A stretch of 64,000 bases of DNA, taken from assembly GCF_000186865.1 (NCBI RefSeq), contig NW_008705587.1, positions 104,652-168,651 on the forward strand, written 5' to 3'. Of this stretch, positions 5,390 through 27,913 are shown piece after piece. Under the pieces are notes generated by a model, which did no database searches, was not told where the DNA came from, and saw only the letters and a list, made by a program, of their open reading frames with translations. Positions within the stretch are counted from its first letter, which is position 1; every line of letters begins with the position of its first letter. Position numbers and translations under genes: made by a program. Source of the stretch: Aureococcus anophagefferens (Eukaryota; Sar; Pelagophyceae; Pelagomonadales; Pelagomonadaceae).

Positions 5390-6795
5390 TTACAGCTCCT
5401 CCTCCTCCGGGTCCGCGATGGCGAACGCCTGGGTCCCGCCCGGCCGCGCGGCGACCTCGAGGACCGCGAGCGGCGCGGCGCCCGGCGACCGCCGGAGCCG
5501 CGCGACGAAGACGTGGCCCGCGAAGGTCGAGATGTCCGTGGACCCCTGGGGCTCCAGGAGGCCGACCTTGGTCTCCGCGCCGCCCGGGCTCCGCCAGAAG
5601 AGCTCGACGGCCTCGTCGCCGAGATTCGCGAACGACGCGGCGACGGGCGCGTCGGCCGGCGGCGGCTCCGTCGTCCCGTCCAGCGCGTCGACGCGGGCGA
5701 GGTCCGCCGCCGACAGGCAGAGCTGGAGCGCGCCGCCGACGTAGGTCCGCGCGTTCGCGGCGATGTGCGCCGGCGACGACGACCGGGGGATGACGACGGC
5801 GCCGCGCTGCACGGCCCAGCTCAGCGCGACGGCCGCCGCGGAGGCGCCCGACGGCGCGCCGATGGCCCGGAGCGTCGGCGACGCGAGCACCGGGTTCCCG
5901 CGCCGCTGCATCTCCCACTGCGTGCCTGGGCAGGAAAAGGGTGCGAAATTCCCAACTGCAAAGGCTCCTATCTCGGTCGTTTTCCGCTCGTTTCGGCTGA
6001 TTTTTGGACGAGCGATCATCTCTCGGAGCGCTCTCGAAGCGTGGGTGCTGTTTCCGAAACGCGCGCAGGCGGAACACTCACGTTGAAGCGACGTTGAATC
6101 ACCCTTTTCCTGCCCTGCTGCGTGCCCAACGTGCTGTACGACATGAAGACGACGCCCGCGCGCTCCGCCGCGGCCCGGAGCGGTTTCTCGGCGTGGAAGG
6201 GGTCCATCCAGGTCTGGAAGACGTGGGGCTTCACCTTCGCGAAGTTGAGCAGCTCCCTGAACTCGGCGTCGCGGAAGTTCGACGCGCCGACGGCCTTCAC
6301 GGCGCCGGCGGCGTACGCGGCCTCCATCGCGCGCCACGAGTCGCGCCAGTCGCCCTCGACCCGTTTCTGCCAGCCCTTGCCGCAGAGGCCGTCCCAGCAG
6401 CTCGGGTAGTGCTGGAGGAAGACGTCGACGTAGCCGCCGAAGCGCGCCGCGGACGCGGCGATCTTCGCGGCCGCGGAGTTCGCGCCGTGGTCGCGCGGGT
6501 GCATCTTCGTCACGATCACGACGTCGCTCCGCGGCACGCCGCTCCGCGCGAGGCCCTCGGCGACGGCGGCCTCGTCGTACCACTCCGCGGCCTGGGCCGT
6601 GTCGAGGAGCCGCGCGCCGGCGCGCAGCGCCGCCTCGACGCTCGCCGCCGTCGCGCGGCCGGCGCAGCCGTAGCCGACGCGCGGCATCTCGACGCCGTTG
6701 GACAGCGTCACGTTGGGACTCGTGCAGATGTCTTCCGATGCCATCGCGGCGACGACGGCGCACGACGCGGCGAGCAGGCGAGAGCCTGCGCCCAT
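5390..6795 (-). CDS. Secreted aldo/keto reductase fused to VHL-like beta domain (2 exons)
   Basis: Exon 1 is 6795-6126 and exon 2 is 5925-5390; the 200-nt intron between is introner copy A1. Splicing as GC-AG gives 401 residues and restores YSTLGTQWEMQRR. A hydrophobic leader (MGAGSRLLAASCAVVAAMAS) suggests secretion or the ER. The reductase part shows LLDTAQAAEWYDE (Asp and Tyr), IVTKMHP (Lys) and FLQHYPS (His), the aldo/keto reductase catalytic tetrad, plus GASNF and IPRSSSPAH for NADPH binding. From about residue 320, FANLGDEAVELFW, GLLEPQGS and TFAGHVFVAR match the pattern of the von Hippel-Lindau beta domain. The fusion and its function are inference. The substrate is unknown. Confidence 0.88.
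5926..6117 (-). mobile_element. Introner element family A, copy A1 (acts as intron)
   Basis: 192 bp bounded by 8-bp direct repeats CTGCGTGC (plus strand) at 5918-5925 and 6118-6125. In the transcript sense the repeat reads GCACGCAG; the first copy supplies the GC donor and the element ends in CCTGCCCAG, supplying AG. The ends are inverted repeats (CAGGGCAGGAAAAGGGTG against its reverse complement, with one difference at the second base). Removing element plus one repeat joins the two reductase exons in phase 1. No open frame or transposase fits in this length, so it is non-autonomous. Internal core at 5994-6011. Confidence 0.93.
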
Positions 6796-6959
6796 CGGAT
6801 TTTGGCAAAAGATAAAAAAAAGCGCTTGTGGCAAAATCAAAGCAGGCAAGACGACGATGGGTCGAGCCCTGGCCGCGCCGCCGTGAGCGTCGAGCGTCGT
6901 CGCGCAGTCCTCGCACGCGCCGCGCGCGCCGCCGCGGCGGGCGGCGCACAACCGCACCG

Positions 6960-8662
6960 ATGGCGGCGTGCGCCGGCGCGTCCGGCGCCGGGCGGCCGCT
7001 GGTCATGATGGCCGTGCTCGGCGTGCTCTGGGGCGGCGCCTGCTTCGGGTTCAACGGCATCAAGCGCGTGCTGCTCATCGAGGGCCTCTTCCTCGACGCC
7101 TGCGACGGCGGCGAGGCGCGCTGCGGCGCCCAGCTCGACCGCCTCGACTTCGCGTGGACGTTCAGCTCGAGCATGCTCAACGTCTTCGCGATCGTCAACG
7201 GCTGCGCGATCGACGCGCTGGGCCTGCGGCGCGTCTGCTTCCTGAGCGGCGGCCTGCTGGGTTTAGGCGCGGTGTGCTTCGGCCTCGTCGTGACGCGCGC
7301 GCGGCTCGAGTACCTGCTCGCGTACGCGTACTTCGCGCTCGTCGAATCGGGCATGCTCCTGAGCTTCGGGGGCCTGTCGCTCCAGGGCGCGGAGGGGTCC
7401 GTCGCGCTCTGCGGCCGCGTCTTCGACGTCAAGGTCGTCGCGGCGCCGGTCATGGAGACGGCCTTCGCGCTCGGGACGCTCGTGTTCCCGCTGCTCGGGC
7501 TCGCGTACGACGCAGGGCAGCAAAAGAGAGCGAAGTTCCCAACTTCAAAGGCTCATATCTCGGCCGTTTTCCACTCGTTTCGGCTGATTTTTGGACGAGC
7601 GATCATCTCTCGGAACGGTCTCGAAGCGTGGATGCTTTTTCCGGAACGCGCGCGCGCGGAACACTCACGTTGAAGCGACGTTGAATCACCCTTGTGCTGC
7701 CCAGGTACGACGCCGCGCCGTCGCTCGGCGTCGCGGGGCTCCACTGCGTCTACTTCGGGTGCTGCGCGGCGCTCATCGCGGCCTGCGGCTGCGCCGTGGC
7801 GCCGCGGCCCCTGCGGCGGCCCGCGCGCGACGTCGCCGCGGCGCTGGACCGGCGCGCGCTCTGCTTCGTCCTCGCGGCGAGCCTCGCCGTCGGCGCGAAC
7901 ATCACGCAGCAGGGCTACTACGTGGCGACGTTCAGCGAGCAGGCGGCCTGGCACGGCCGGCCCGAGACCCTCGGGGCGCTACTGGACTGGGGCTTCCCGG
8001 CCCTCGCGCTGCCGTCGCTCGTCGTCGTCGCGCGCCTGGAGGAGCGGTGGCACGACGGCGGCTTCGAGCGGACGTGCGGCCACGGCTACGCCGCGCTGGC
8101 GCTCGCCCAGGTCATCTGGGGCGTGTTGAGCGCCGCGCGCGACTGGCGGTTGCAGATCGGCGCCGTCGCGCTCTTCGTGCCCGCGCGGCTCCTCGGGTTC
8201 GTGCACCTCTACGAGTCCGTGGGCTTCTTCTTCCCGCCGGAGCACTTCGGCGTCGTCGCGGGCACGTGCGCGTCCGTCGGCGGCCTGGCCGCCGCCGTCG
8301 CGTCGGAGTGCCTGAAGCGGTGGCTCCACGCGTCGGGCGGCGACCCGCGGCGGCCGAACCTGGCCCTCGCGGCCGCGCTCGCGGCGCTGAACCTGGCCGC
8401 GGGCGCCGCGGCGCCGCGCGCGCGGCTCGGGCGCCGCGGCGCCGCGGCGTCGCCGCGGACGCCGGTCTACAACCCGGTGCACTTCGACGACGACGGGCCC
8501 GGCTCCAAGGACGCGGGCCTCGAGCTCGCGGACGCCGTCGCGCGGAGCCCCGCGGCCGCGGCGCCGACGCCCGTCGCCGCGCTCGACTTCGGCGAATCGG
8601 CGCCGGCGCGGGACTCGGCCGTCGCGTCCTACGCCGACGAGTCGGAGCTCTACGAGTTATGA
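6960..8662 (+). CDS. MFS-type membrane carrier (2 exons)
   Basis: Exon 1 is 6960-7504 and exon 2 is 7705-8662; introner copy A2 forms the 200-nt GT-AG intron. The spliced protein has 500 residues and reads LLGLAYDAAPSLGVAGL across the junction. Around ten to twelve hydrophobic segments are visible, beginning with LVMMAVLGVLWGGACFGFNG. The pattern resembles the SLC43/nodulin-like branch of the major facilitator superfamily (a first loop with paired acidic and Cys residues, GLRRVCFLSGGLLGLG after TM3), but no substrate can be assigned. The last 90 residues are a soluble acidic tail. ATG 6960 is the first in frame after stops and begins just before TM1. Confidence 0.85.
7513..7704 (+). mobile_element. 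Introner element family A, copy A2 (opposite splicing orientation)
   Basis: 192 bp between 8-bp duplications GTACGACG at 7505-7512 and 7705-7712. The left duplication supplies the GT donor and the element ends GCTGCCCAG. Excision is exact and in phase 2. Internally it runs in the same plus-strand direction as A1, A3 and A4, but here the host gene is on the plus strand, so relative to transcription it is inverted. Its left end is CAGGGCAGC and its right end GCTGCCCAG, so the acceptor-type terminus lies on the other side compared with A1. Confidence 0.93.
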
Positions 8663-8673
8663 CCCGGGGTCGC

Positions 8674-8973
8674 CTAGTCCTGGCGCTCCGCGTCCTGGGG
8701 CTCGAGGCTGTGGGACACGTAGACCGTGTCGCCGTCGTTGAGCACCTCGCGGACGACCGCGCCGGGGTCGAGCTCGACGCCGTCGGCCTTGGTGATCTTC
8801 GTCGGCACGCCGAGCTGCTTCCAGCCCTGGTAGGTCTTGTCGTCGTAGCGCGCGATGCCCACGTGCCCGAGCCACTTGACGCGCTGCGTCGCCGCGCCGC
8901 AGCTCACCTTGATGCACTTGTCGCGCACGACGACGTCGAGCATCCAGCTCTCCGTCTCCTCGAGCGCGCTCAT
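8674..8973 (-). CDS. Small protein, possible ubiquitin-like fold
   Basis: A 99-residue protein starting at ATG 8973, not recognised with certainty. The alternation of short hydrophobic strands (WMLDVVVRDKCIKVSCG, VGIARYD), a central WKQLGVPTKI and a closing VLNDGDTVYVSH resembles a ubiquitin-like or doublecortin-like beta-grasp domain standing alone; this is inference from pattern. Composition and third-position GC are those of genuine genes here. Its stop is 11 bases from the stop of the MFS carrier on the other strand. Confidence 0.6.
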   Translation of the reverse strand: MSALEETESWMLDVVVRDKCIKVSCGAATQRVKWLGHVGIARYDDKTYQGWKQLGVPTKITKADGVELDPGAVVREVLNDGDTVYVSHSLEPQDAERQD

Positions 8974-9130
8974 CGCCGGCCCGGAGCGGCGCCGTGCCGG
9001 AACGCGCGCCGCCGCCGCGTGCCCGGCGCGGTGGGGCTGGACGACGCCGACCGCTGCGCGCGGGGCTGCCCTCGGGCGGCTTCAACGACGCTGCTCGATG
9101 CACTGCAACTAGGCGATCCATACTGCTTCG

Positions 9131-9805
9131 ATGGCCGCGCTCGACGACCCCCCGCTCGGCGGCGACGCGCCGCCGCCGCCGGTCATCGTGCTGCTGGACC
9201 TCGCGTGCCTCGAGATCGTCAAGACGAAGCGCGGCGAGTTCCAGCTGCTCAACGGCGACGACCACCGGTCCGTGCTCGGCAAGCACGGCCGCGACCCGGC
9301 GGAGTGCCGGCCGGACATCGCGCACCAGGAGCTCATGGCGCTCTTCGACTCGCCGCTGAACAAGGCGAAGCAGCTCAAGGTCTACATGCGCACGCGGCAG
9401 AACGTGCTCATCGAGTTCCACGAGTCCGTGCGCATCCCCCGGACGTACAAGCGCTTCGCGGGGCTCATGGTCCAGCTCCTCCACAAGCTCAAGGTGCGCG
9501 CCGCCGACGGCCGCGAGACGCTGCTCAAGGTCATCAAGAACCCGATCCAGAGGCACCTCCCGCCGGACTGCGTCTGCTACGGCTTCTCCGTCCAGGGCGA
9601 CCGCTACACGCCCGGCGCCTTCGCCGCGACGCTCCCGGACAAGCCCGTCTGCTTCGTCGTCGGCGCCATGGCCGCGGGCCACGTCAACCAGGACGACCAC
9701 GAGAACATGGTCGACTACGTGAGCCTGAGCCAGTACCCGCTCTCGGGCGCGACGGCGATCAACCGGCTCCTCGGCGCCATCGAGGCGCACCGGGGCATCG
9801 CGTAA
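9131..9805 (+). CDS. EMG1: EMG1/NEP1 18S rRNA pseudouridine N1-methyltransferase
   Basis: A 224-residue SPOUT-class methyltransferase needed for small-subunit ribosome assembly; the family N1-methylates a hypermodified pseudouridine of 18S rRNA in the nucleolus. Nearly every conserved block is present: VIVLLDLACLEIVKTKRGEF, RPDIAHQ, DSPLNKAKQLKVYMRT, IPRTYKRFAGLMVQLLHKL, VIKNPIQRHLPP, then FVVGAMAAGHVN and YPLSGATAINR, which form the knot and S-adenosylmethionine site. The length is close to the family norm. ATG 9131 begins just before a short Pro-rich N-terminus. Single exon. Confidence 0.97.
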   Translation: MAALDDPPLGGDAPPPPVIVLLDLACLEIVKTKRGEFQLLNGDDHRSVLGKHGRDPAECRPDIAHQELMALFDSPLNKAKQLKVYMRTRQNVLIEFHESVRIPRTYKRFAGLMVQLLHKLKVRAADGRETLLKVIKNPIQRHLPPDCVCYGFSVQGDRYTPGAFAATLPDKPVCFVVGAMAAGHVNQDDHENMVDYVSLSQYPLSGATAINRLLGAIEAHRGIA

Positions 9806-11262
9806 GGGGGCATTTCCCCCCTCTTGCGTGGGTCGTGCGGGGGCATCGGTGTCGAGCCGACGCGGGGCTCGGCGGCTTCCTCGACGACGTGCGCGCGCGT
9901 CGCGGGCGCGAGCCTAACCCTTACAAGTCCTGGTTTGGTGTGCGTCGTCCTCGCTGTTTCTCCCAAAAGATTACAAGCTCGGGGCGCCGATCGACGAAGC
10001 TCGGGGCGCGACCGTTTGCTAGCGCCAAGTCCGCCGCGCCCGCGACCGCGACCGGCCCCGGACCGCGGCGATGGACGGCCGCGCCGCCCGCGCGCCGCCC
10101 GCCGGGCGCGGGCGCGTCGTCGACGCGGGCGCCCGCGGCGCGCCGCGTCGACGGGACGCGCGTCTCGCCGAGGGGCTGCCCCAACTGCCCCAACGGCGAC
10201 CTCGGGCGATGGCGACGGCCCGAAGGCGCGGCGCGCGTCGCCGCGGCCCGGCGCTCGCGGCGCGTCCCCCGCGCGCCGCGCGCCGGGACCCGGATCGCAT
10301 CGTCGAGGCGGCCGACCGGACCGGACCGTCGCGCGGGGCTCGGCCTCGGGGCGACCCCCGGCGCGAAGCGCCGGAAGAAAATTTTGCGCACGCGCCGGAC
10401 GCCCCGCGCGTCTGGGTCTCGCCGCGAGCTCACGCAGCCCGTCGGATGACCGGTTACGGGCCGCGGACCGTCGCGCCACGGCGTCGTCCCCTCGGCGCGC
10501 CCGTGCAACCGTAAAACGGTTGTACTTTCGGACCGACGCGGGCAACAGCCCGCGGTCGAAGGCAACCACGCGGAGGACAAGGAGTCCATCGACATGCAGC
10601 TCGTGGACGTCGTCCGCGAGGAGTCCTAGCACCTCGACTACCTCCGGGCCTTCCGCGGGCCTCCGGCTCGCGCGCCGACCGTGCCCGAGGACTTCGAGAC
10701 GGCCGCGTCCACGACTACAACCTCGACGAGTGCCCACGGGACTCGGAGCGATGGACTCCACGCACGCGACGGCCGGCGGGCGGCGGGAGATCGACGAAGA
10801 TCCCGGCGTCGGCGTCGGCGTCGTCCCCTCGAACGTCTTCGAGACCGTCGCGCTGCTCGGCCGCGCGAAGCGCGGAGGAAAATTTTCCGCATCGCCGCCG
10901 CCACCTCGATGCTCGTGACGTGTCGCCCGGCCTCGGCGACTCGACTATCAGCGCGGAGTCTTCCTGGCTGCTACGCGGGCCGTTGCCCGGGGTGCGAAGC
11001 TCTGATCACGCCGCACCGCGCGAAGCGCGGAGCCTCTGCCACCGCGCTGGTGCTGCCCCGGCGCCTGACTTGCCCCGGCGCCTGACTTGACCGCAGCGAC
11101 GAGGGCCATCGATGCCGCGGACGCGTCGCCCAGCTCTGTGGGTCGTCTGCGGAGCGGACCCGCGACCTGCCGAGGCGCGCTCGCCGGCGCTGTCGTGCTG
11201 CCGGCGCTGGTNNNNNNNNNNNNNNNNNNNNNNNNNNNNNNNNNNNNNNNNNNNNNNNNNNC
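9806..11262. other. Unassigned GC-rich stretch with coding fossils and short repeats
   Basis: No convincing gene between EMG1 and the vWA gene; long open frames here are Arg/Ala/Pro composition artefacts. Two similar sites occur, GGAAGAAAATTTTGCGCA around 10372 and GGAGGAAAATTTTCCGCA around 10872, each preceded by CGCGAAGCGC. Near 10558-10625 a frame reads HAEDKESIDMQLVDVV then meets a stop, suggesting an eroded exon. A 17-bp tandem duplication (GCCCCGGCGCCTGACTT) lies at 11055-11088. The stretch may hold a pseudogene or the 5' part of the gene cut by the assembly gap. Confidence 0.4.
11212..11261. other. Assembly gap (50 Ns)
   Basis: Exactly fifty N characters, the usual placeholder of a scaffold gap of unknown true size. 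It falls directly before a Pro-Thr-Ala repeat tract, which probably prevented assembly, and hides the start of the vWA gene. Confidence 0.99.
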
Positions 11263-12921
11263 GAGCCCACGGCCGACCCGTCGGCCGAGCCCACGGCCGC
11301 GCCCACGGCCGACCCGTCGGCCGCGCCCACGGGCGACCCGTCGGCCGCGCCGACGGGCATCCCGACGGCCGACCCGTCGGCCGCGCCCACGGCCGAGCCG
11401 ACGGCCGACCCGTCGGCCGCGCCCACGGCCGCGCCCACGGCCGCGCCCACGGCCGCGCCCACGGCCGACCCGTCGGCCGGGCCCACGGGCATCCCGACGG
11501 CGGCACTGGCGCCTGCGCCATGACGCCGCCGTCCACTGGCGCCTCCCGCGCCTGTGAGACCCCTCTGAGCCTCCCGTCCCCCGCGGTTCCTCCCGGGCCC
11601 CCTACGTTTAGAGACGCGTCAAGGCATCCCGACGGCCGACCCGACCGCCGCGCCCACGTCCGACCCGACGGCCGGCACGGGCGCGCCCACGACCGACCCG
11701 TCGGCCGCGCCCACGGGCGTGCCGACGGCCGACCCGTCGGCCGCGCCCACGGGCACGCCCACGACCGACCCGACCGCGCCGCTGCTCATCGCCGAGTGCC
11801 TCGACGAAGCGGCGTACTACGTCTTCGGCTTGGACGCGAGCAAGTCGATGGAGGAAACTGGCTGGAACATCGCTCGCAAGTTCACCCAGGATATGGCGAA
11901 GACGCTGCTCGATTTGAACGACGAGAGGATCTCAGCGGGTCTAGAGCCGCACCAGGTGGCGGCGTACTGGTTCAACGGGGCGCACGTTAACTCCCCGGGC
12001 ACGTTCACGGAGTTCACGACCGACTACGACGCTTTCGAGGTTTCCATACTCGACTATGGCGAGGTCGAGGAAGCACAGACGCAGCACCCGCAAGGGTTCC
12101 AGAAGGCCACACTGTGGCTGGACCCCGTCACTTCGAAGTTCAAGAGCCACGTGCTGATCACCGACGGCGCTCCGTTCGCGGCCACCGGACCCTGCAAGAA
12201 CGGAGAGAGCCTGGGGCATCTCATCGGAGGAACTCCGGAGCACAACTACGAAACGTTCACGGACATTCGAGACACTCCGTGCCGCGCGGAGTGCGCCGTC
12301 TTGGATTGCGACGCGACCGGTCCGACGGGCTGCCTGGAGCAAATGAGACCTTGGGCCAAGGCAGATTGCCTGAGTGAGGACGGGAAGAGCGACAAAGGCA
12401 AAGCCGAGGCGTGCGAGTGCGCGCTCCACGTCGCCGAACTCTTCAACGCGGTGCCGCACTTCTCGACGACGGTCGTGGGCGTCCAGAACGCGCATAATCC
12501 CGAGGAACGGTACACGGAGATCTTCGACGCGATGGCGTCGACCCCGGGCCACTACATCGACGCGATGGGCGGCGAGCTCGGGGAAGACGATATCACCGAA
12601 TACGTGGACCGGACGCTGCGAGCCGCGTGCAACACGCCGTACCAGAAGTGCCAACGGAACAACGACGTCTCGACGTTCCCGCGCGACAAGTACGCCGACG
12701 GCGACGACGAGTTCCAGCACAAGAGCTGGGCCATCGGCTGCGACTTCGCCGAGAAGTACCCGGACCTTCCCGAAGGATGCGACGCCGAATGCGACGGTGG
12801 AGACGGAGGAGGCGAAGGCGTCGGAGGCTGCTGCGGCGAAACCTGCAGCGGAAACTGCGACACTTCGAGGCTTATCTGCAGAGACGCGTGCGACTACTAC
12901 TACGACCTCGCCGACGGCTAG
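11263..12921 (+). CDS. Pro-Thr-repeat protein with von Willebrand A-like domain, 5' end lost in gap
   Basis: The frame begins right after the gap with repeats of the type PTADPSAAPT, ends at an in-frame TGA at 11521, resumes the same repeats at about 11624 in the same frame and continues into a globular domain. A 135-nt intron (11489-11623) would reconcile this. The domain shows YYVFGLDASKSMEETGWNIA, a D-x-S-x-S metal-binding motif of vWA domains, followed by KSHVLITDGAPFAATG and a Cys-rich tail (GCCGETCSGNCDTSRLIC). It is probably extracellular or cell-surface, with the repeats as a stalk like the gene at 63.4 kb. The domain is lower in GC than its neighbours. The true start and signal peptide are not visible. 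Confidence 0.7.
11489..11623 (+). other. Putative GC-AG intron flanked by an 8-bp repeat
   Basis: GCATCCCG occurs at 11489-11496 and again at 11624-11631, 135 bases apart. Removing 11489-11623 leaves PTGIPTADPT in frame and deletes the stop at 11521. The left repeat would give a GC donor and the interval ends in AAG. This is the same geometry as the introners, but no inverted terminal repeats are visible, and the repeat could arise from the surrounding Pro-Thr repeats. A canonical-looking GTGAGA lies inside, after the stop. Confidence 0.4.
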
Positions 12922-12947
12922 GAGCTCTCTCACCCCCCGCCGGACGC

Positions 12948-13017
12948 GGCCGACCCAAGAGGCCCCCCCCCCGGCAACGCGACACCGCGCGGCGTCCGGC
13001 CGACCCAAGAGGCCCCC
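12948..13017. repeat. 20-bp direct repeat in a tail-to-tail spacer
   Basis: GGCCGACCCAAGAGGCCCCC occurs at 12948-12967 and again at 12998-13017, between the vWA gene and the opposing MFS gene. It is likely a small local duplication in the shared 3' region; no function is evident. Confidence 0.6.
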
Positions 13018-13063
13018 GCGCGCGACGCGCGCCGCCCCGCGCTCGCTAAGCTTAAGCGCCATC

Positions 13064-14395
13064 CTAGGCCGCCTCCTTACCCTCGGCCGCGGCCGCGCGG
13101 AGGGCGACGGGCGCGAGCGCGAGCGCGGCGGCCGTGAGCGCGATGTTGAGGTGGAACGGCGCGGCGGGCCGCGCGGCGCGGCGGCCCCAGACGTAGAGCT
13201 TCCCGTAGACGAGGGGCCCGAGGATCTTGAGGATGGCGACGAGGTTCGCGCGGTCGCCGCTGAGGCGGCCCTGGGGCACGCCCTTCCTGCCCGCGAGGGC
13301 CGTGAGCGACGTCGACGCGCCCAACGTCCGCGCGGGCCCGAGGAAGCCGACGGCCGCGGCGACCAGCGCCGCGCGGTGCGACACGCAGCAGCCGACCCAG
13401 AAGCCGAGGTTCGAGAGCGTCGCGACGGCCGTGAAGGCCTGGAGGCCCACGCGCTTCGCGAGGCGGCCGCCGACGACGTTGCCGACCGCGCCGAGCAGCG
13501 GGATCGCCGTGAAGAACGTCGCGACGGCCGACGGGCCGAGGCGCCACTCGTCGATGGCGAAGATCTGGAGCACGTCGCCCATGAAGATGGGCTGGAGCGT
13601 GATGGCGAGGAGGAGCGCCAGCAGCCGCATCTCGCGGCCGTCGGAGAAGAGGCGGTAGCACGACAGCGGGTTGAACGCGCCGAGCTCGAAGGGCCGCCGG
13701 TCGTCGAGCGTCTCCTCGACGTTCGCCGCCGCGAAGGCCACGGCGGCGGCCGACGCGACCGTCGCCGCGCCGTAGAGCGACCGGAGCGTCTTCCCCGGCA
13801 GCAGGCTGCCGAGCTTGATGCCGCAGGCGAAGCCGACGTTCACGAGCGCGAAGATCAGGCCCGACGTCGCCGCGAGCTGGCCCGGGTCGGCCTTGTACGC
13901 GTCGCCGAGCATCGCGCCGGACGCGAGGAAGTAGAGGCCGACGACGAGCGAGCCGACGAACTTTGTCACGAGGAGCGCGGGCACGGACGGGAACGCGCAG
14001 GCCAGGCCGTTCGCGCCGAGCACGGCGAGCAGCACGCCGAGCAGCACGGGCTTGCGGCCCTGGGAGTCGGCGAGCGCGCCGACGACGGGCGCGAGCAGGA
14101 TCTCGCAGCCCGCGGACGCCGAGCCCACGACGCCCAGGAGCGCCGTCGCGCGCTCGCTGCCGAGCGCGTCGATGAGCGCCGGCGCCGGCGCCAGCGCGAC
14201 GACGGCCACGGACAGCACGAACATGAAGCTCAAAGGCTTGAGCGCCCGCTCCGGCCGCACGGCGACGGCCACGCCGCCGCCGCCGCCGCGCGCCGCGACG
14301 ACCGTCGCGGGCTTCCTGGGCGCGCGCAGCGACGACTTCGGCGCCACGAGCCCGTGGGCCTGCAACGCCGCAATGGCGAGCAATTTGAGGAACAT
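13064..14395 (-). CDS. Plastid-targeted MFS transporter
   Basis: A 443-residue carrier of the major facilitator superfamily. The N-terminus (MFLKLLAIAALQAHGLVAP, then KSSLRAPRKPATVVAARGGGG) is a bipartite plastid leader, so a plastid-envelope location is expected. About twelve hydrophobic segments follow. The loop between TM2 and TM3, GALADSQGRKPVLLG, is the classical G-x-L-a-D-x-x-G-R-K MFS motif, with a looser copy at NVVGGRLAKRVGLQ. The overall pattern recalls TetA/SLC46-type drug or metabolite exporters; the substrate is unknown. ATG 14395 is used; the reading frame extends upstream only through a GTG. Confidence 0.86.
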   Translation of the reverse strand: MFLKLLAIAALQAHGLVAPKSSLRAPRKPATVVAARGGGGGVAVAVRPERALKPLSFMFVLSVAVVALAPAPALIDALGSERATALLGVVGSASAGCEILLAPVVGALADSQGRKPVLLGVLLAVLGANGLACAFPSVPALLVTKFVGSLVVGLYFLASGAMLGDAYKADPGQLAATSGLIFALVNVGFACGIKLGSLLPGKTLRSLYGAATVASAAAVAFAAANVEETLDDRRPFELGAFNPLSCYRLFSDGREMRLLALLLAITLQPIFMGDVLQIFAIDEWRLGPSAVATFFTAIPLLGAVGNVVGGRLAKRVGLQAFTAVATLSNLGFWVGCCVSHRAALVAAAVGFLGPARTLGASTSLTALAGRKGVPQGRLSGDRANLVAILKILGPLVYGKLYVWGRRAARPAAPFHLNIALTAAALALAPVALRAAAAEGKEAA

Positions 14396-17278: not shown

Positions 17279-17334
17279 GCTCGGCTCGATAGCTCGGCTC
17301 GATGGCTCGGCTCGGCTCGATGGCCCGGCTCGGC
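17279..17334. repeat. 13-bp tandem repeat in a divergent promoter
   Basis: Imperfect tandem copies of GCTCGGCTCGATR (about four units) fill the spacer between the ADAL gene and the ABCG gene. It may be a minisatellite or clustered binding sites. Confidence 0.6.
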
Positions 17335-17435
17335 TTGCAAGGAGGAGGCCCTCGATGGCTGCCTCCGTTTTTAGCGACCACAAGTTCTTGAGGCGAAAAT
17401 TGAGGCGCCTTGAAGCGCACTTGGCTCGAGCAACG

Positions 17436-19244: not shown

Positions 19245-19269
19245 GGCTTTCTACATCGCTTAGAGCGCC

Positions 19270-20007: not shown

Positions 20008-20154
20008 GACCCCTCGACTCGTGATGGGCTGCACCTCGGAAGCTTGACGCCACGATGAGGCAAACGAACTGAAGCGCTCCTCGCTGCTCTCGAGCCCGGG
20101 TCGTCGTCGAGCGCGTCGTCGAGCACCGATCGCCCGCGTCGTCGTCGAGCAAGA

Positions 20155-21507
20155 ATGGCGCCGCGGTCCAACAAGAAGCAGGCGACGTCGCGCGCGCCGC
20201 GCGCGGCGGACACGCACGCGCGCCAGCGCCTGCCGCCGCCCGTGTCGCGGCGCGAGCAGCAGCGGCTCTACGCGAACCAGCCTTCAAACATGACACGCGC
20301 AAAAGAGGCGCTCGGCGTCGCGGGCGCCTTCGCGATGCGCATCGTGCGGAACGTGGAGAACTGGTGGTTCTTCCTCTTCCTGCTGAGCGGCGGGAGCTAC
20401 ATGTCGCTCCTCGACGCGGCGCTCGCGCCGGCGGCGCTCGCGGGCGCGCGCGTCGACGGCGCGGCCGCGGCGTTCGCGGCCGTCGTGCCGCCGGCCGCCG
20501 TCGTCAAGGTGCTCGTCGACGGCCTCGACGGCGGCGACGCGGCGCTCTGGCGCGGCGATGGCGCCGCGGGCCAGCTGCTCTTCGGCGAGGCCGGCGCGAA
20601 CCGGGTCTGGGTCCACGAGGACGGCTCGGGCCTGGTGCGCGTGGGCCACAGCGTCTTCCTCCAGGAGGCGGGCTGCGCGACGGGCTGCGACAAGCTCGCC
20701 GCGCCGGGCGCCGTCTGCCTCCTCGACTACGACGCCGACGGCCCCGACGGCGCGGGCGAGCCGGCGCTGCTGGCCTGCGAGCAGGGCGGCCGGCGCCTGA
20801 GCCGCGTGAAGCAGGACGGCGTCCGCGTGCCCGTCGCCTCCACGGACGCCGCGGGCGACGCGCTCAACGGGCCGTCGTCCGCGGCGCTGGGCCCCAACGG
20901 CACCGTCTTCTTCGCGGACGCGCACGCGTCCGCCGCCGGCGCGTCGAAGCGGCGCGACGCGACGCTCGCGGACCGCGGCGCGGCGGCCGACGGCGTCTAC
21001 GCGCTCTCGAAGGCCCAGCTCGCGCCCCTCGTCGCCGACGGCGCCGGCGCCGACGCCGCGGCCGCGGCGCCGACGCGCGTCGCGGCCGTGCCCGGCACGC
21101 CCGAGGCGCTCGCCTTCAACGCCGACTACACCGCGCTCTACGTCGCCGACTCCGCCGAGGGCGCGGTCTTCGCCTTCGACGTCGACCCGAAGAGCGGCGC
21201 CGTCGACGAGGCGTCGCGGTCCGTCTTCTTCGATCTGGCGGCCGCGGGCGACGGCGACGATTTGGCGAGCCGCCGCGCGTTCCGGGGCCTCGCGGTCGAC
21301 GCGCTGGGCCGCGTCTTCGCGACGGGGCCGCGCAAGGTCTACGTCCTCGGCGCGGACGGCGCGCTCCTCGGCGCCGTGGCCACGGCGGCGGAGCAGCCCG
21401 TCGACCTCGCCGTCGCGGGCGATGGGCATCTCTACGTCGTCACGGAGACCATGCTCCTCCGCGTGCCCCTCGCGCGCGGCGTCGCGCCGCCGAAGCTGCC
21501 CAAGTAA
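20155..21507 (+). CDS. Membrane-anchored SMP-30/strictosidine-synthase-like beta-propeller protein
   Basis: A 450-residue protein. Residues 1-60 are basic, followed by one likely membrane anchor (WWFFLFLLSGGSYMSLLDAA). The rest reads as a six-bladed beta-propeller of the SMP-30/gluconolactonase superfamily: LLACEQGGRRLSRV, LNGPSSAALGPNGTVFFAD, GTPEALAFNADYTALYVAD and FAFDVDPKSGAVDE are the typical blade signatures (N-G-P-x-D-like and the YVAD motif). Members are Ca-dependent lactonases or arylesterases; activity here is not established because the catalytic acids cannot be confirmed by eye. The opposing gene ends only 3 bases after its stop. Confidence 0.8.
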   Translation: MAPRSNKKQATSRAPRAADTHARQRLPPPVSRREQQRLYANQPSNMTRAKEALGVAGAFAMRIVRNVENWWFFLFLLSGGSYMSLLDAALAPAALAGARVDGAAAAFAAVVPPAAVVKVLVDGLDGGDAALWRGDGAAGQLLFGEAGANRVWVHEDGSGLVRVGHSVFLQEAGCATGCDKLAAPGAVCLLDYDADGPDGAGEPALLACEQGGRRLSRVKQDGVRVPVASTDAAGDALNGPSSAALGPNGTVFFADAHASAAGASKRRDATLADRGAAADGVYALSKAQLAPLVADGAGADAAAAAPTRVAAVPGTPEALAFNADYTALYVADSAEGAVFAFDVDPKSGAVDEASRSVFFDLAAAGDGDDLASRRAFRGLAVDALGRVFATGPRKVYVLGADGALLGAVATAAEQPVDLAVAGDGHLYVVTETMLLRVPLARGVAPPKLPK

Positions 21508-21510
21508 GCG

Positions 21511-22152
21511 TTACGCCGGGGTCTCAAAGTAGGCGACGACGGCCGCGACCTCGGCGACGCGCGCCCTGCCGAGGTCGAGGCCGCCGAGCGCCGCCGCCGC
21601 TTCGGTGGTGGCGCCGCTTGCCGCGAGGCGCATGACGTCGAGCGCGGCCGCGGGCGCGCCGTTGGTCGCTAAAACGGCCGAGAGGTTGCGCGCCGCGGCG
21701 GAGGACCCGGCGGCCGCGCCGCGCGCGTAGCGGCGCGCCGCCGTGAGGTGGTGGCCCGCGCCCTGGGCGAGGACGCCGAGCGCGTTCTCCGCGTCGCCGC
21801 AGGCGCCGGGCCGCGCGGCCGCGGCCGCCTCGTAGCGCGCGGCCGCGGCGGCCGCGCGGCCGCGGTAGCGCGCGAGGTCGCCGAGGCGCAGCTGGCAGCG
21901 GTACGCGCCGGCGGCGCCGGTCCGGGCCAGCAGCGCCTCGTAGACGGCGGCGGCGCGCGCGAGCGTGCGCCGGCCGCGGCGGCGCTTGCGGCGCGTCGCC
22001 CGGCGCCGCGTCGCCGCGACGCGGTCGTGGAAGCAGGCCTTCCAGAGCGCGCGCTCGAGCGCGTCGAACTTGTCCGGCGGCGCGGCTTCCAGTGGGCTCA
22101 GGAACTTGGCCAGGCGCGCGGCGTCGAGCGTTATTGGGGTCGTGTCGGCCAT
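21511..22152 (-). CDS. SMG7/EST1-like TPR protein, short
   Basis: A 213-residue all-helical protein. The segment YRCQLRLGDLARYRGRAAAA, then ENALGVLAQGAGHHLTAARRY and NLSAVLATNGAP, follows the pattern of the EST1/SMG5-7 14-3-3-like TPR domain (a cube of helices where L-G-D-L-x-R-Y, then N-x-L-x-V-L-A are conserved). It is much shorter than animal SMG7 and lacks the long C-terminal region, so a role in nonsense-mediated decay is only a suggestion. It starts at ATG 22152. A basic patch (RRRATRRKRRRGRR) lies near residue 50. Convergent with the propeller gene, with 3 bases between stops. Confidence 0.6.
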   Translation of the reverse strand: MADTTPITLDAARLAKFLSPLEAAPPDKFDALERALWKACFHDRVAATRRRATRRKRRRGRRTLARAAAVYEALLARTGAAGAYRCQLRLGDLARYRGRAAAAAARYEAAAAARPGACGDAENALGVLAQGAGHHLTAARRYARGAAAGSSAAARNLSAVLATNGAPAAALDVMRLAASGATTEAAAALGGLDLGRARVAEVAAVVAYFETPA

Positions 22153-22270
22153 GCTAGATGGAGATGCTAGATGGCCATGCCCTCAGGTCGTCCTTTACGG
22201 GCAACGCTGCCTTCACTGAGGCAATGCCACAAGATTTTAGCGAGGAGCCTGAGCACACTGTACAGCAGCC

Positions 22271-23709
22271 ATGTCGCAGCCAAGCAAGCACGAGGCCTGG
22301 GTGCCGCTGTTCAAGGTGCAGGTGTTCTTCAGCTGCGTGAGTTTCAGCATCATCGTGCCGAGCATCGCCAATACCTCGACCGCATGGGCGCCGAGGAGTA
22401 CGTGCTCGGCGTCGCCGTCGCGGTCTACAGCCTCGGCGAGATGGTCGGGTCGGCCGTCTTCGGCCGGGCCATGACGCGCGTGCTCCGCAGCGACCCGGAC
22501 GTGGGCCCGCGGACCGTGCTGCTGCGGACCATCGTCTTCGGCGTCGTCGGCAGCGCGCTCTACGTCGCCGCGGACGACCTCGGCCAGCGGCCCGCGTGCC
22601 GCCCCTACGCGCCCTGGGTCGTCGTCGCCGCGCGCTTCCTCGGCGGCGTCTGGACGGGCGGCAAGATGGTCGTGGAGCAGACGTACGTGGGGGTGGCGGC
22701 GCTGGAAGAGCGCGTGACGCCTCTGACGTCGGACATCGGCGTCTTCGCGGTCCTCGGCTTCGTCGCCGGGCCCAGCGTCGGCGCGCTCTTCGCGCCCGTG
22801 GACTTCGCTGTCGGCGACGTCCGCGTGGACCAGTTTACGGCGCCGGGCTGGTTCATGGTCTTCCTGACGGTCGCGATGTGGTTCGGGTGCCGCGCGTGCT
22901 TCGACCCGGCGAAGGGCTACGCGCGGCCGCTGCGGCGCCTCGCCTCCGACGACGCGTTGACCCTCAACAAGGCCGCGGCCCTCGGCAGCCCCGCGCTCGG
23001 GCGGCGCCGGGACGAGGAGGCGGCATCGGCGGAGGCCGCGGCGCCGAGCCGGACGGGCCTCGTGGTCTGCCTCGTCGCGTTCTTCGCGCACTTCTACTCC
23101 TTCGCGATCCAGGAGACGATCACGACGCCCTTCGTGACGAAGCGCTACGCCTGGTCCCAGGCGGCCGTGAACTACCTCTTCGCGGCCGTGAGCGTGCTGT
23201 CGTTGGTTACGTCCGTCGCCGTGAGCCGCCTGTCCAAGGCCGGGATCCGCGACTTCGACCTGCTGGTGCTGAGCCTCGTGCTCGGGCTGAGCGGGTCGTT
23301 GCTCCTGATCGACGCGCCCCTCTTCCCCGCGCTCGGCGAGGGCCGCTTCCTCGCGGGCTTCGCTTTGATCACCGTGGCCTTCCCCTTCGGCCGCAACGTC
23401 GCGCTCGCCATCTTCTCCAAGGTCCTCGGCCCGGCGGAGCAGGGCGAGTGGATGGGTTTGATGTTCGTCGTCGGCGCGCTGCCGCGGTGCCTGGGCCCGT
23501 CCTGGAGCCTCTACGCGCTCCAGCTCGCCTGCGTCGCCTTCCCGGAGCCCGCGCCGTGCCCGCCGGGCGGCCGCACGTGCCTCGAGTTCGCGCTGTCCGG
23601 GCTCGTCTTCGCGGCGTCCCTGGGCGCCGTCGCGCGCTATCGGACCGCCCTCGCGCCCTACGGCGCCGAGGCCGCGGCGGGGGAGAGCGCACCCCTGACC
23701 GTAAATTAG
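22271..23709 (+). CDS. MFS transporter, SPX-MFS-like, with one frame break
   Basis: The N-terminal 34 codons from ATG 22271 (HEAWVPLFKVQVFFSCVSFS, then IIVPSIAN) form a typical MFS first helix, but the remaining protein, beginning YLDRMGAEEYVLGVAVAVYS, lies in another frame. One missing base at about 22370-22372 would join them. The result would be about 480 residues with twelve helices, including ARFLGGVWTGGKMVVEQTYV and LVVCLVAFFAHFYSFAIQET. The layout is like vacuolar SPX-MFS phosphate carriers without the SPX part. The break could be a sequencing error or a real mutation. The stop TAG at 23707-23709 overlaps the stop of the gene on the other strand. Confidence 0.75.
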
Positions 23710-26700
23710 CCCGGGCGGAGGTCGAGCGTGGTCCGCGTCGCGTTCGCGGAGGACTCGTGCTCCTTGCGCGTCTTGACGATGGCGAGGTGGGGCCGGCCGG
23801 CCTTGAGCTTCTCGAGGCCCGCCTTGGACTTGGTCCGGCACCGGCTCGGGTCGCCGTGGAGCGTGCCCGCCTTTGTTTTTTTGTTTGACTGGGAGCCCGT
23901 CCGCGCGGCTCCCGGCGACGAACCCGGCGGCGCGGCCGACGCGCCGTAGATGTCGACGTGCGTGAGCCGCCGGCAGTGGTCCACGAAGCGGTGGAGGAAG
24001 GGCTCGGGAAGCCGGGCGCAGTGGGCGAGCGACGCGACGCTCAGGGGCAGGAGCGAGCCCCGGAGTAGAGCGAAGGGCTCCAAAGACGCGCAGCCGCCGA
24101 GGTCCAGATGCGTCAGCCGCGGCAGGTTCGCGTCGAGGCGCCGTAGACCGTCGCAGCGCGGGAGGCACAGCGCCAGGAGCCGCGGCGCGTCGAGCACCAA
24201 GGCGTCGACGCCGTGGCACGCGTCGAGCTCGAGCGCCTCGAGGTTCTCGAAGACGAGCGTGTTCCGCGGCAGCTCCGGGCCGCCGTCGTCGTCGCGGTCC
24301 CGGCGCCGCCCCCCGAAGTCGCTCCGCGCGTTGCCCGGCGAGCTCCCCGGCGACGACGACAGGGCCGACGTCGGCGTCGGCGACCGGCTCAGGCGCGCGT
24401 CGCCCTCGGACTCGTAGTCGCTGTGCGACTCGTCGGGGTCCCGCGCGGCGCCGCCCGGCGACGAGCCCGGCGGCGCCGCGAGCCCGCGCCTTCTGCGAAA
24501 CTCGTCGACGTCCTCGAGCAGTTCCAAGAGCGGCCGGAGCTTGCGCTCGGACTTGTGCGCCTTCGCGCAGAAGCCGTGCGCGAACTCGCAGTCGCGGTTC
24601 CAACAGCGACCCGCGAGGAACCGCGCGCACGCGGCCCGGCCGCTGTTCCTGTCGCTCGGCAGCGTCGACGCGACCTTGGCGTAGCGCCGGTACTCGGCGC
24701 CGCGCGTGTCCGCGAGGCGCCGCATCAGCGCGGCGACGGGGCCGTCCTCGTGGCCGGGGCAGCCGACGTGGCATTGGAGCAAGGGGTCGAAGCGCTCCTT
24801 CGTCGCGGACCGCGACGCCTTCGCGGCCTTGCCGCTGGACCGGCGCCGCTCGGACGAGGGCGGCGTCGCGTTCGGCGGCGTGCCGCGCGGTGGAGCGTCC
24901 GGCGTCCTCGAGGGCGCGGACCGGGGCCGCCGCCGGGCCGCGTCGTCGAACGCGGGCTGGCGCAGCGGCGTCGACGCCGCCTCGCTGAAGCGCACGCTGC
25001 CCCGGGGCGCGCGCGCCTCGTCGAGGTCGTCGAGCTCGAAGAGGGGGTCGCCCTCGTCGTCGTCGTCGTCGCCGCGGCCCGCCTTGACGGGCGTCATCTC
25101 GCCGAAGTGGCCTGGGCGGGAAAAGAGTGCGAAATTCCCAACTTCAAAGGCTCCTCTCTCGGTCATGTTCCACTCGTTTCGGCTCATTCTTGGACGAGCG
25201 ATGATCTCTCGGAGCGCTCTCGAAGCGTGGATCCTTTCTCTGGAACGATCGCGCGCGGAACCCTCACGTTGAAGCGACGTTGAATCACGCGTTTCCCGCT
25301 CCGGAAGTGGCCGTCGGACGTCGCGGAGAGCTTGCGGTCGCTCTCGCGCGCGGACGCCGCCGCGAACGCGCCGTCGTCGACGAGCGCGCCCCGGAGCGCC
25401 GCGCAGGCCGCGAGCCGCAGGCGCCGCAGCGCCGGGCACGCGACGGGCAGCGCCGAGAGGTGCTTGGCGCCGAAGTCGCGCGCGGCGACCAGCTCGAGCA
25501 CGACGAGCCCGTCCAAGTGGGGCGCCGCCGCGCCGAGATAGGCCGCGCGCCGCGCCGCCCGGCCGCAGAGCGCCGCGCCCAGCGACAGGCCCGCGTCGCC
25601 GGGCACGGGCGCGCGCGCGACGGCCGGAGCGTCGCCCGTCTCGTCGAGCGTCAGCGACTTGAGCGCGGCGCCGCCGCTCGAGCTCACGGCCGCGAAGGCC
25701 GCCGCGAAGGCGTCCGTCGGCGCGCGCAGGCGCCGGAGCGCGTGGAAGTCGCGGGGCGCCGCCTCCGCGTGGGCCCGGTCGCCGAAGCCGCCGCGGCACC
25801 GCGCGCACGTCAGCTCCGCGAGCACGGGGCAGTGCGGCCGCCGGTCCGGCGCCGCGCACGCGAGGCGTTTCACCACGCAGCGGTCCAGGCTCAGGGCCAC
25901 GAGCTGGTGGCACCGTTCCAGGAGGACCTCGCCGAAGACGACGTGCGACACGTGGAGCGACTCGAGGCGCGGGGCCCGCAGCACGCAGTCGTCGTCGTCG
26001 CCGTCGCCGCCGGGCGGCGCCGTGCGCGCGAGGGACGCGGTCTTCAACGTCGCTTCCAACGTGCGCAGGGCCAGCGCGACGTGGGCCGCCGCGAGGCTCG
26101 GCGACGCGAGGTTCAACGTCCGCAGCTTCAGGCGCCGCGTCGAGGACGCGCGGGTCGCCGCAGGTCACGGACACGTGCTGGAGCCGCGGCAGCGCCCCGA
26201 GCGCCGCGACGTCGCCCAGCGCCGGCGCGGACGCCGCCGGCAGGTCCGCGCCCCAGCCGCCGCGCGCCTCGAACTCCGACACGGAGGCGGGCACCTTCGC
26301 GACGAGCGCCGCCAACCAGTCGTCGCGGACCTCCCGCCTCGCGTGGCCGACCAGGGCGACGCGCAGGCTCCGCAGGTTCGACCCCCGGAAGGGCGCGTCG
26401 AAGGGCGCGAGGTCCGCCAGCGATTCCGCCAGCGCGAGCTCCACGTCCGCCGCGTCGTAGACGTCGTCGGTCGTCGCGTCGTCGCCGTCGTCCCCAAAGT
26501 CGTCGTCCGCGGCCAGGAGCGCCAGCGCCGCGTCGCGCCGCGCCGCCGGCGCCGCGCGCGGCGCCGGCCGCCGCAGGTCGACGCGCACGGACGCCAGCGC
26601 GAGGCCGGACGTCGCGAGCGCGTACCATGTTGGCCCGGCCTCGAGCGCCGCGCACCGCCGGCAGCTCAGGTCCCGCAGGCCCGGGCACCCGCCGAGGACG

Positions 26701-27913
26701 CCGCCGAGGGCCTCGTCGCCGAAGTGGGCGCAGCCGTCGACGTTGAGGCGCGTCAGGCGCGCGCAGCCGCGCGCCGCGTCCGCGAAGCGGGGCCCCGCGC
26801 CCGTGCCGCAAAAGTCGACGCTCTCGACCGTCGCGGCGACGGCGGCCGCGAGCGCCGCGGCGGCGCCGTCGCTGACGGCCGGCGCGTCGCGGAATCGTAG
26901 CTCCCTGAGCGTCGGCGCGCAGGTGGCTAAAGCATCGGCGAACCTTCCCTCGGCCTCGCGCGCGCCGCTGACCTTGAAGGCGACGAGGCCGACCTGGGCA
27001 GGAAAAGGGTGCGAAATTCCCAACTTCAAAGGCTCCTATCTCGGTCGTTTCCCGCTCGTTTCGGCTGATTTTTGGACGAGCGATCATCTCTCGGAGCGCT
27101 CTCGAAGCGTGGGTGCTGTTTCCTAAACGCGCGCGCGCGGAACACTTGTATAGAACAGAGCTTGAATCACTCTTTTCCTGCTCCGAGGCCGACGCCGTCG
27201 ACGGCGCGGAGCACGGACTTGAGCTCGCCGTCGCCGACGCCCGCGAGGCTCGCGGCCTCGCCGTGGGCCGCGGCGCGCGCGCGGCCGAGGAGCGCCGACA
27301 TCTGCCGCCGGCGCGCCGTCCGCGACCGGCCCGCGTCGGACCGCGCGGAGGGCGCGGACCGCGGCGCGACGTCGTCGCCGAAGCCGCCGCCGCCGCGGTC
27401 GACGTCGTCGTCGTCCCGCGCGGACGGCCCGCCGAAGAGGCGGCTCCACGTCGCCGGCACGACGCCGCCCTGGCCGCCGCCGAGCCCCGCCGCGCGGACC
27501 TCGATCGCCGTCACCGCCGCGCCGCCGCGCTCGCGCTCGTGGAGCGCGCGCGTCAGCCACCGCGCGAGCGTCGCCCCGAAGTGGGACGGCCAGCCGACGA
27601 CGACGCGCCCGCAGAGCGCCGGCAGCGCGCGCACGCCCTCCGTGACGCCGCGCTCTGTGACGCCGAGCGGCACGGACCCGAGCTCGAGCGAGCAGACCTC
27701 CGAGCCCGGCGCGAGCGCCGCGCGCGCGAGCGCGTCGCTCAGGCGGTCGCTCTCCGCCGCGTAGGCCCAGAGGCCCTCGAGCACCGACGCCGGCGCGAAG
27801 CAGAGCTGCTGGGCCAGGAGCGACGAGCCCTCGGCGTCCTGCGAGATGCACGCGACGACGCGCCGCGCGCACATCTCCTGCAGGTCCCGGATGCGCCAGG
27901 ACTGGGACGACAT
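23706..27913 (-). CDS. Leucine-rich repeat protein with inserted CCCH zinc finger (3 exons, two introners)
   Basis: Exons are 27913-27194, 26993-25312 and 25111-23706, separated by introner copies A4 and A3. The junctions read VDGVGLVAFKVSG and SDGHFGEMTPVK. The product is about 1,270 residues. LRR repeats of the cysteine-containing F-box/AMN1 kind (GCARLTRLNVDGCAHFGDEA, CPGLRDLSCRRCAALEA) fill the first two exons. Exon 3 starts with a disordered region and a CCCH finger C-ARFLAGR-C-WNRD-C-EFA-H (spacing 7-4-3), then more LRRs (NLEALELDACHGVDALVLDA). Exon 2 needs one frame change near 26130-26170: either a single extra base or a 49-nt intron at 26126-26174. It may bind RNA through the finger; the exact role is unknown. 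Confidence 0.85.
25112..25303 (-). mobile_element. Introner element family A, copy A3
   Basis: 192 bp between GAAGTGGC repeats (plus strand) at 25104-25111 and 25304-25311; in the transcript the repeat is GCCACTTC and gives a GC donor. The acceptor end is CCCGCCCAG. The opposite end is CGGAGCGGG rather than CAGGGC. Its interior is collinear with A1. Phase 1 splice joins exons 2 and 3 of the LRR-CCCH gene. Confidence 0.93.
26126..26174 (-). other. Possible 49-nt GT-AG intron (or single-base frameshift)
   Basis: Reading frame must change here. Removing 49 nt from GTGTCC (donor at 26174) to GAAG (acceptor at 26126) gives PRLQHLRTLNLASPSL, an excellent LRR sequence. Without an intron, a one-base deletion would be required in the same interval. 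The alternative translation PRLQHVSVTCGDPRVLDA also looks coding, so the choice is open. Confidence 0.4.
26994..27185 (-). mobile_element. Introner element family A, copy A4
   Basis: 192 bp between AGGCCGAC repeats (plus strand) at 26986-26993 and 27186-27193. In the transcript GTCGGCCT supplies a GT donor and CCTGCCCAG the acceptor; phase 0. The half nearest 27185 has diverged from the other copies (ACTTGTATAGAACAGAGCTT replaces the usual ACTCACGTTGAAGCGACGTT), yet total length is unchanged. Confidence 0.93.

What the first reader, a model, noticed from the sequence alone, without database searches (positions are those of the whole stretch)
5918..27193. Four 192-bp introner transposons, each making an exactly 200-nt intron
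Copies A1, A2, A3 and A4 are all exactly 192 bp, each inside a coding sequence, each flanked by an 8-bp duplication. In every case removal of the element plus one duplication restores an uninterrupted conserved protein (AKR, MFS, LRR-CCCH twice). The element always supplies the 3' AG; the duplicated host sequence supplies the 5' GT or GC. Established knowledge: introner elements in Aureococcus are described as non-autonomous DNA transposons with this co-option mechanism. Identical lengths after sequence divergence suggest recent spread or a length constraint.
Basis: partly seen in the sequence, partly recalled or inferred. Interest (0 to 1): 0.93.

Follow-up and report, generated by a model that had tools for sequence, protein, structure and literature searches.

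The report
Known introner transposons making new introns
Small jumping DNA elements in a brown-tide alga land inside genes and appear to be cut out of the message as ready-made introns, a known process; the follow-up lead is that one family reads from only one of its two unlike ends while its body can sit either way round.

Summary
In detail: four 192-bp copies at the stated places, each with an 8-bp duplication, whose removal (200 nt) restores a frame. The body matches 1,879 genome places (reversed control 0). The strand carrying the 3' AG is the coding strand in 80 of 81 typed copies. The duplication starts with GY in 93 of 95 insertions (CDS rate 0.197).

(1) On C1 and most of C2, all 83 copies whose two ends matched exact patterns carry AG on one strand only (52 CAG..CAG, 31 CTG..CTG, 0 mixed). 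Yet two forward copies have a body identical over 155 bp to five reverse copies, so body and ends reassort: inversion between the terminal repeats, or gene conversion. (2) A related 203-bp family, also in this window, has AG at both ends in 17 of 23 copies (15 of the 23 chosen by an intact end) and is read from either strand.

Length stays 192 bp in most diverged copies; constraint is not proven. No transposase was found; hAT affinity is a lead only. Splicing itself was not tested.

The parts
5926..6117 (-). A1, 192-bp introner (reverse type, ends CTGGGC..GCCCTG on +); intron = 5926-6125 on - strand, GC..AG, in an aldo-keto reductase gene
   Evidence: Pfam PF00248
5918..5925 (.). A1 target duplication, left copy CTGCGTGC
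6118..6125 (.). A1 target duplication, right copy; supplies the 5' GC on - strand
7513..7704 (+). A2, 192-bp introner (forward type, CAGGGC..GCCCAG); intron = 7505-7704 on + strand, GT..AG
7505..7512 (.). A2 target duplication, left copy GTACGACG (5' GT)
7705..7712 (.). A2 target duplication, right copy
25112..25303 (-). A3, 192-bp introner (reverse type, CTGGGC..GCTCCG on +); intron = 25112-25311 on -, GC..AG
25104..25111 (.). A3 target duplication, left copy GAAGTGGC
25304..25311 (.). A3 target duplication, right copy; supplies the 5' GC on - strand
26994..27185 (-). A4, 192-bp introner (reverse type, CTGGGC..GCTCCG on +); intron = 26994-27193 on -, GT..AG
26986..26993 (.). A4 target duplication, left copy AGGCCGAC
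27186..27193 (.). A4 target duplication, right copy; supplies the 5' GT on - strand
29503..29699 (-). related second-family introner B, 197 bp, AG kept at the used end only, flanked by GCGAGGAC
32570..32772 (-). related second-family introner B, 203 bp, CTG..CAG ends (AG on both strands), flanked by GGGCTCGC
63177..63217 (+). fragment matching the right part of the 192-bp family (profile positions 137-179), no duplication found

Best explanation
These are introners: short non-autonomous DNA transposons (MITEs) of Aureococcus anophagefferens. Insertion duplicates 8 bp of a gene. The element's outer end supplies a pyrimidine-rich stretch plus CAG as 3' splice site, and the first two bases of the duplication (GT or GC) serve as 5' splice site, so a 200-nt intron is removed and the exon sequence is unchanged. 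In this family the two ends are unlike (sense strand mostly CAGGGC..GCCCAG), so only one strand of each copy can be spliced. Shown: duplications, unlike ends, coding-strand agreement, GY rule, restored frames. Inferred: actual splicing, and mobilisation by a transposase encoded elsewhere.
For: Four copies with duplications. 1,879 genome matches against 0 for the control. Of 81 copies typed by their ends, the AG strand is the coding strand in 39 of 39 forward and 41 of 42 reverse copies; at margin 0.2 or more, 36 of 36 and 35 of 35, with no stop in the joined frame. In the loci picked by body sequence alone it is 17 of 17 and 16 of 16. GY at the start of the duplication in 93 of 95 insertions against a base rate of 0.197, binomial p 6e-63; phases fit GY availability by codon position, p 0.80. 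Frames restored in the window. In the protein database, P0001 (96%) runs on across the A1 site, P0003 (259 aa) reads into an A1-like element, and P0044 and P0045 run on across the A2 site. Organism named.
Against: No RNA evidence. No transposase found in four Pfam searches. P0001 and P0044 may be empty sites or spliced transcripts; I could not see their DNA. The A. anophagefferens gene model P0046 leaves out a much larger segment around the A2 site than 200 nt would. Duplication plus inverted ends alone are not above the reversed control in this GC-rich window. Of 84 copies with profile score above 150, 11 have a duplication worse than 7 of 8; they are outside the 95. Two of the 95 lack GY: L061, whose coding strand was undecidable (margin 0.01; the other strand would give GT), and L071, unresolved.
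Confidence: 0.94

Rival explanations
1. Ordinary old introns that look alike because the genes or introns were duplicated (paralogy), not inserted transposons.
For: Intron-like boundaries; A3 and A4 lie in one gene.
Against: Similarity ends at the element edges, with an 8-bp duplication particular to each site in 73 of 84 copies (7 of 8 bases or better); copies lie on many contigs.
Confidence: 0.02
2. Introners spread through RNA (reverse splicing of the intron RNA, then copying into DNA), as proposed for fungal introners (PMC9860276).
For: 80 of 81 typed copies are read in the spliceable sense.
Against: 8-bp duplications and terminal inverted repeats in most sampled copies; the fungal introners so interpreted lack both (PMC9860276, passage). 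Selection against unspliceable insertions explains the strand agreement.
Confidence: 0.04
3. The unlike ends and the two body orientations come from ectopic gene conversion of the body between copies (or from two independent end mutations), not from inversion between the terminal repeats.
For: 24 sites carry two alleles shared by forward copies and reverse copies outside the R1 body type, which suggests exchange between copies. L131 differs from the reverse consensus also at 9, 178 and 182, with bases that occur in forward copies.
Against: Conversion tracts covering one end would give CTG..CAG or CAG..CTG copies: 0 of 83. Two mutations would pass through the same unseen forms.
Confidence: 0.45
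4. The 192-bp length is only recency, not constraint.
For: 16 of 16 copies with 0-3 substitutions are 192 bp, and 12 of 18 with 4-7.
Against: 31 of 38 copies with 8 or more substitutions are 192 bp; 600 substitutions against 16 indel events in 72 copies; substitution counts do not differ between 192-bp and other copies (p 0.38). Some substitutions are inherited subfamily variants, and no neutral yardstick was available, so constraint is not shown either.
Confidence: 0.45

Closest known systems
Introners of Aureococcus anophagefferens (Huff, Zilberman and Roy 2016, Nature, recalled; not held); second-hand in PMC9860276, PMC7789003, PMC9481584
   Same: Species, short non-autonomous DNA element, duplication and terminal inverted repeats, one splice site carried and the other co-opted, introns near 200-210 nt
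   Different: I could not compare sequences with the published families. The exclusive ends with bodies in both orientations, and the both-strand family, were not mentioned in the passages I read; I cannot say they are absent from the 2016 paper
Introner family 4 of Aureococcus sp. (TARA MAG; PMC9860276, Fig. 2F legend)
   Same: Genus, 8-bp duplication
   Different: Carries both splice sites and adds 12 bp to the transcript; here one site is co-opted and nothing is added
Introners of Symbiodinium microadriaticum (PMC9860276, Fig. 2B legend)
   Same: Element carries the 3' splice site, duplication gives the 5' site, inverted ends
   Different: 4-bp duplication there, 8-bp here
hAT superfamily (Ac/Ds; recalled)
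   Same: 8-bp duplication; end sequence CAGGG; Ac likewise has two unlike outermost ends (recalled)
   Different: No hAT transposase found (control genomes silent); of the recalled target consensus nTnnnnAn, A at position 7 occurs in only 16 of 95
Amoebophrya introner elements (PMC7789003, passages)
   Same: Inverted repeats that can pair at the intron ends
   Different: Non-canonical splice motifs and 3-5 nt direct repeats there; GY..AG and 8 bp here

Membership tests
Introner (intron-generating transposon) | Many near-identical introns at unrelated positions | tested here: met
   1,879 core matches against 0 control; 40 scored matches of 97-100% identity on many contigs
Introner (intron-generating transposon) | Insertion in coding sequence with splice signals on the coding strand | tested here: met
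   80 of 81 typed copies; 33 of 33 in loci picked by body alone
Introner (intron-generating transposon) | RNA shown to be spliced at the element edges | not testable with these tools
   no RNA data; only proteins continuous across the sites
Aureococcus DNA-transposon introner | 8-bp duplication, terminal inverted repeats, one carried and one co-opted splice site | tested here: met
   73 of 84 A copies have duplication 7 of 8 or better with inverted ends; 23 B copies kept, 12 weak rows dropped; GY 93 of 95
Aureococcus DNA-transposon introner | Sequence identity with a published A. anophagefferens introner family | not tested
   2016 paper not held; published family sequences not available to me
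hAT superfamily | 8-bp duplication and CAGGG-type end | tested here: met
   consensus recalled. One end only: the other is CTGGG
hAT superfamily | Mobilised by a hAT transposase with matching ends | tested here: inconclusive
   PF05699 and PF14372: 0 matches, but no control genome rang either
hAT superfamily | Target consensus nTnnnnAn (recalled) | tested here: inconclusive
   A at position 7 in 16 of 95; position 2 is under splice selection
MULE | MULE transposase in the genome | tested here: not met
   PF10551: 0 matches; control rang in 4 of 14 genomes, 3 above cut-off; introns could hide a domain
P element | P-type transposase in the genome | tested here: inconclusive
   PF12017: 0 matches; control rang in 1 of 14, below cut-off

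The most novel reading that the evidence does not exclude
The 192-bp introner has two unlike ends, CAGGGC and CTGGGC, and moves only as an unlike pair. The CTG end, read outward, is the splice acceptor, so one base pair in each end sets which strand is an intron. The body between the terminal repeats can invert in place or during transposition. Because the outer two bases stay put, the flip keeps splicing intact, so one lineage can serve with its body either way round. A sister 203-bp family solves the same problem differently, with an acceptor at both ends.
Probability: 0.4. Interest if true: 0.66.

Novelty: already known. Interest (0 to 1): 0.45.

Why it matters
Introners are among the few mechanisms credited with creating many introns at once. 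This window and genome agree with it in the species where it was described. They add a concrete question: why a family that could carry an acceptor at both ends was never seen to do so in 83 paired copies, while its sister often does. If bodies flip between unlike ends, transposition chemistry and splicing constrain the same two base pairs, and that can be tested by comparing strains. The co-opted 5' site shows no clear consensus beyond GY in 95 cases, with GT about three times as frequent as GC relative to availability, which bears on how little a 5' splice site needs.

Tried and rejected
Autonomous partner: four Pfam families searched in six frames, none found; only the MULE answer has a control that rang above cut-off. 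Viral vector: two exact body patterns in viral contigs, 0 stretches each; that tool may leave out records near this genome. PMC12768974 (passages) reports candidate introners in mirusviruses; nothing linked them to this family.

Is the reverse type one clade? Not rejected by the AU test: p 0.069 with 83 rows, p 0.209 with 96 rows and identical rows left free. The trees need 13 and 14 changes; well-supported branches force 1 and 4. So switching rests mainly on the identical bodies.

RNA folding: mean z -1.3 (forward), -3.1 (reverse), -2.9 (B, strand not set), 14 copies each. The end-to-end helix follows from the inverted repeats, so it is not independent evidence.

Generic scan for duplication plus inverted ends: no excess over the reversed window.

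Rows dropped and sampling: one search counted 81 of 84 copies with score above 150 (two typed 'none', one with short flanks). One search kept 72 of those 84 (duplication 7 of 8 or better, inverted ends, flanks). Typing uses the AG itself, so the AG at the typed end is by definition; the tests are the other end and the coding strand. One search dropped 12 weak rows from 7 loci; 15 of its 23 copies come from places picked by an exact 16-base end, which favours intact ends (13 of 15 have AG at both ends; 4 of the other 8 do). Three B copies have a stop across the join (L029, L101, L108), one of these also a margin of 0.03. In one search one length-shifted copy was left out; two more (L113, L122), cut off-frame by the fixed 192-bp cut, stayed untyped.
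Full report
WHAT IS THERE. All are 192 bp, identical to each other at 160 to 175 of 192 positions, and each is flanked by an exact 8-bp duplication. Taking out the element and one duplication (200 nt) turns a broken 259-aa reading into a 401-aa aldo-keto reductase (Pfam PF00248). It turns a 237-aa reading into a 500-aa protein and keeps the local frame at both sites in the third gene, which however has a frame break of its own near 26150. The names 'MFS' and 'LRR-CCCH' are not backed by Pfam at its cut-offs.

ORGANISM. The 500-aa protein matches named Aureococcus anophagefferens records at 92% (P0045, covering 97%) and 94% (P0046, covering 35%), and an unnamed ENA record at 97% (P0044). The genome held is 49.05 Mb in 86 contigs. 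This is the species in which such introners were described (Huff, Zilberman and Roy 2016; recalled, the paper is not held). I saw it referred to in PMC9860276 (passages; sections 7 and 26), PMC7789003 (passages) and PMC9481584 (passages). The last two state direct and inverted repeats of constant length, and a characteristic intron length near 210 bp.

HOW MANY. A 23-mer of the body, up to 3 mismatches, has 931 + 948 matches; the reversed control has 0. By ends, exact patterns: right end AG 640, right end TG 320, left end CT 483, left end CA 765, each with control 0. The patterns are exact, so these counts by end are lower bounds.

DOES THE ANATOMY FIT SPLICING? A codon model was trained on 38 open frames of the window (58 kb, seeded with the two joined genes) and applied to 150 + 150 nt of joined flank. 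Of 84 copies with profile score above 150, 82 could be typed by their ends and 81 had enough flank. 39 of 39 forward copies lie in genes on the same strand and 41 of 42 reverse copies in genes on the other strand; the exception has margin 0.01. With margin 0.2 or more it is 36 of 36 and 35 of 35, with no stop in the joined frame. Many of these loci were picked by their right end; in the loci picked by body sequence alone the result is 17 of 17 and 16 of 16. Of 95 insertions with good duplications (72 of this family, 23 of the second), 93 have GY at the start of the duplication; GY makes up 0.197 of CDS dinucleotides. GC 50, GT 43: GT is about threefold enriched over GC relative to availability (p 3e-7). 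No further donor consensus stands out in the duplication. Intron phases (34, 20, 31 for phases 0, 1, 2, of 85) fit the codon positions at which GY is available (p 0.80).

PROTEINS FROM ELSEWHERE. P0001 (ENA, 408 aa, 96%) runs on across the A1 site. P0003 (ENA, 259 aa) reads into an A1-like element at the same residue. P0002 (69%) also runs on across the A1 site. P0044, P0045 and P0047 run on across the A2 site, while the gene model P0046 leaves out a larger segment there. These show that the joined sequence is the conserved protein; they do not say whether the records are empty sites, spliced messages or annotators' models.

Read along the body there are two types, forward (right end AG) and reverse (left end CT, which is AG on the other strand). 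The typed end is AG by definition; the point is the other end. In 39 forward copies the second base of the left end is A 24, G 12, C 3; in 43 reverse copies the matching base of the right end is T 39, C 4. So the unused end gave AG in 0 of 82. I then paired the left and right ends listed by four whole-genome patterns on contig C1 and on C2 up to 2.96 Mb: 52 CA..AG, 31 CT..TG, 0 CT..AG, 0 CA..TG (Fisher p 2e-23); 72 of the 83 are exactly 192 bp. They come from 122 right-end and 156 left-end hits; the rest lacked an exactly matching partner.

BODY AND ENDS REASSORT. Among 96 typed 192-bp copies, two forward copies (L131, L147) have a body identical over 155 bp to five reverse copies, down to all six sites that mark the R1 body type. 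Both lie in genes on the forward strand (margins about 0.17 and 0.27) with duplications GCGGGAGC and GTTCGAGG. Two reverse copies (L027, L056) carry the full forward set of nine marker bases. Inversion of everything between the outer two base pairs converts one type into the other in a single step and cannot produce a mixed type. Two substitutions or one-sided gene conversion would pass through mixed types, which were not seen. Internal gene conversion that spares both ends remains possible; 24 shared polymorphic sites suggest exchange between copies. The trees do not settle how often it happened.

A SISTER FAMILY. Two more elements in the window, 29503-29699 and 32570-32772, belong to a 203-bp family. 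It shares the body motif CTGATTTTTGGACGA with the 192-bp family; this motif occurs in all six window elements, with 2 mismatches in A3. Its end has 1,931 genome matches at up to 2 mismatches against 5 in the control. Of 23 copies kept (12 weak rows dropped), 17 have AG at both ends; relative to the body these are read from one strand in 10 and from the other in 7. Fifteen of the 23 were picked by an exact end, so the share with two intact ends is inflated: 13 of those 15, 4 of the other 8. Three of the 23 have a stop across the join. In the 6 copies with only one AG left, it is always at the used end. This family is therefore read from both strands with like ends.

LENGTH. 59 of 72 copies are exactly 192 bp; 600 substitutions against 16 indel events. 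Copies at 192 bp by number of substitutions: 16 of 16 (0-3), 12 of 18 (4-7), 22 of 27 (8-14), 9 of 11 (15 or more); substitution counts do not differ between 192-bp and other copies (p 0.38). This argues against pure recency, but without a neutral yardstick it does not prove a constraint. Insertion between nucleosomes has been reported for A. anophagefferens introners (PMC9860276 passages); I did not test it.

MOBILISATION. CAGGG ends and 8-bp duplications point to hAT (recalled), and maize Ac also has two unlike outermost ends (recalled). No hAT, P or MULE domain was found. Only the MULE control is informative. Membership in hAT is not claimed.

VERDICT. The finding is right and already known as a kind and in this species. 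The end rule, the reassorting body and the contrast with the sister family are what I would follow up. The library searches listed no paper whose title or abstract start describes them; the 2016 paper itself could not be read, so I do not claim that they are unpublished.

Noticed in passing
window 26130-26170: The LRR-like gene on the minus strand changes frame near here with no introner present: a short intron, an assembly indel or a broken gene.
   Followed up: no
window 27132-27172 (A4): Part of A4 near its right end matches the other copies poorly (76% over 41 nt), as if a short stretch had been replaced, yet the total stays 192 bp.
   Followed up: no
window 63177-63240: Fragment of the 192-bp family's right part followed by TTGCCCAG, with no left part or duplication found; possibly an old intron with an introner 3' end.
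   Followed up: partly
L131, L147 versus L002-L005 and L007: Forward copies with bodies identical to reverse copies.
   Followed up: yes
192-bp family, positions 9 and 11 and their mirror positions: Several repeat variants occur, and the two arms of one copy carry the same variant in 65 of 82 copies, in both types: the arms seem to evolve in concert.
   Followed up: partly
window 30950-31216 and 31975-32241: 267-bp direct repeat at 92% identity, not an introner pair; perhaps a duplicated gene segment.
   Followed up: no
window 11238-11807 and 63641-63869: Arrays of a 12-bp unit at two distant places.
   Followed up: no
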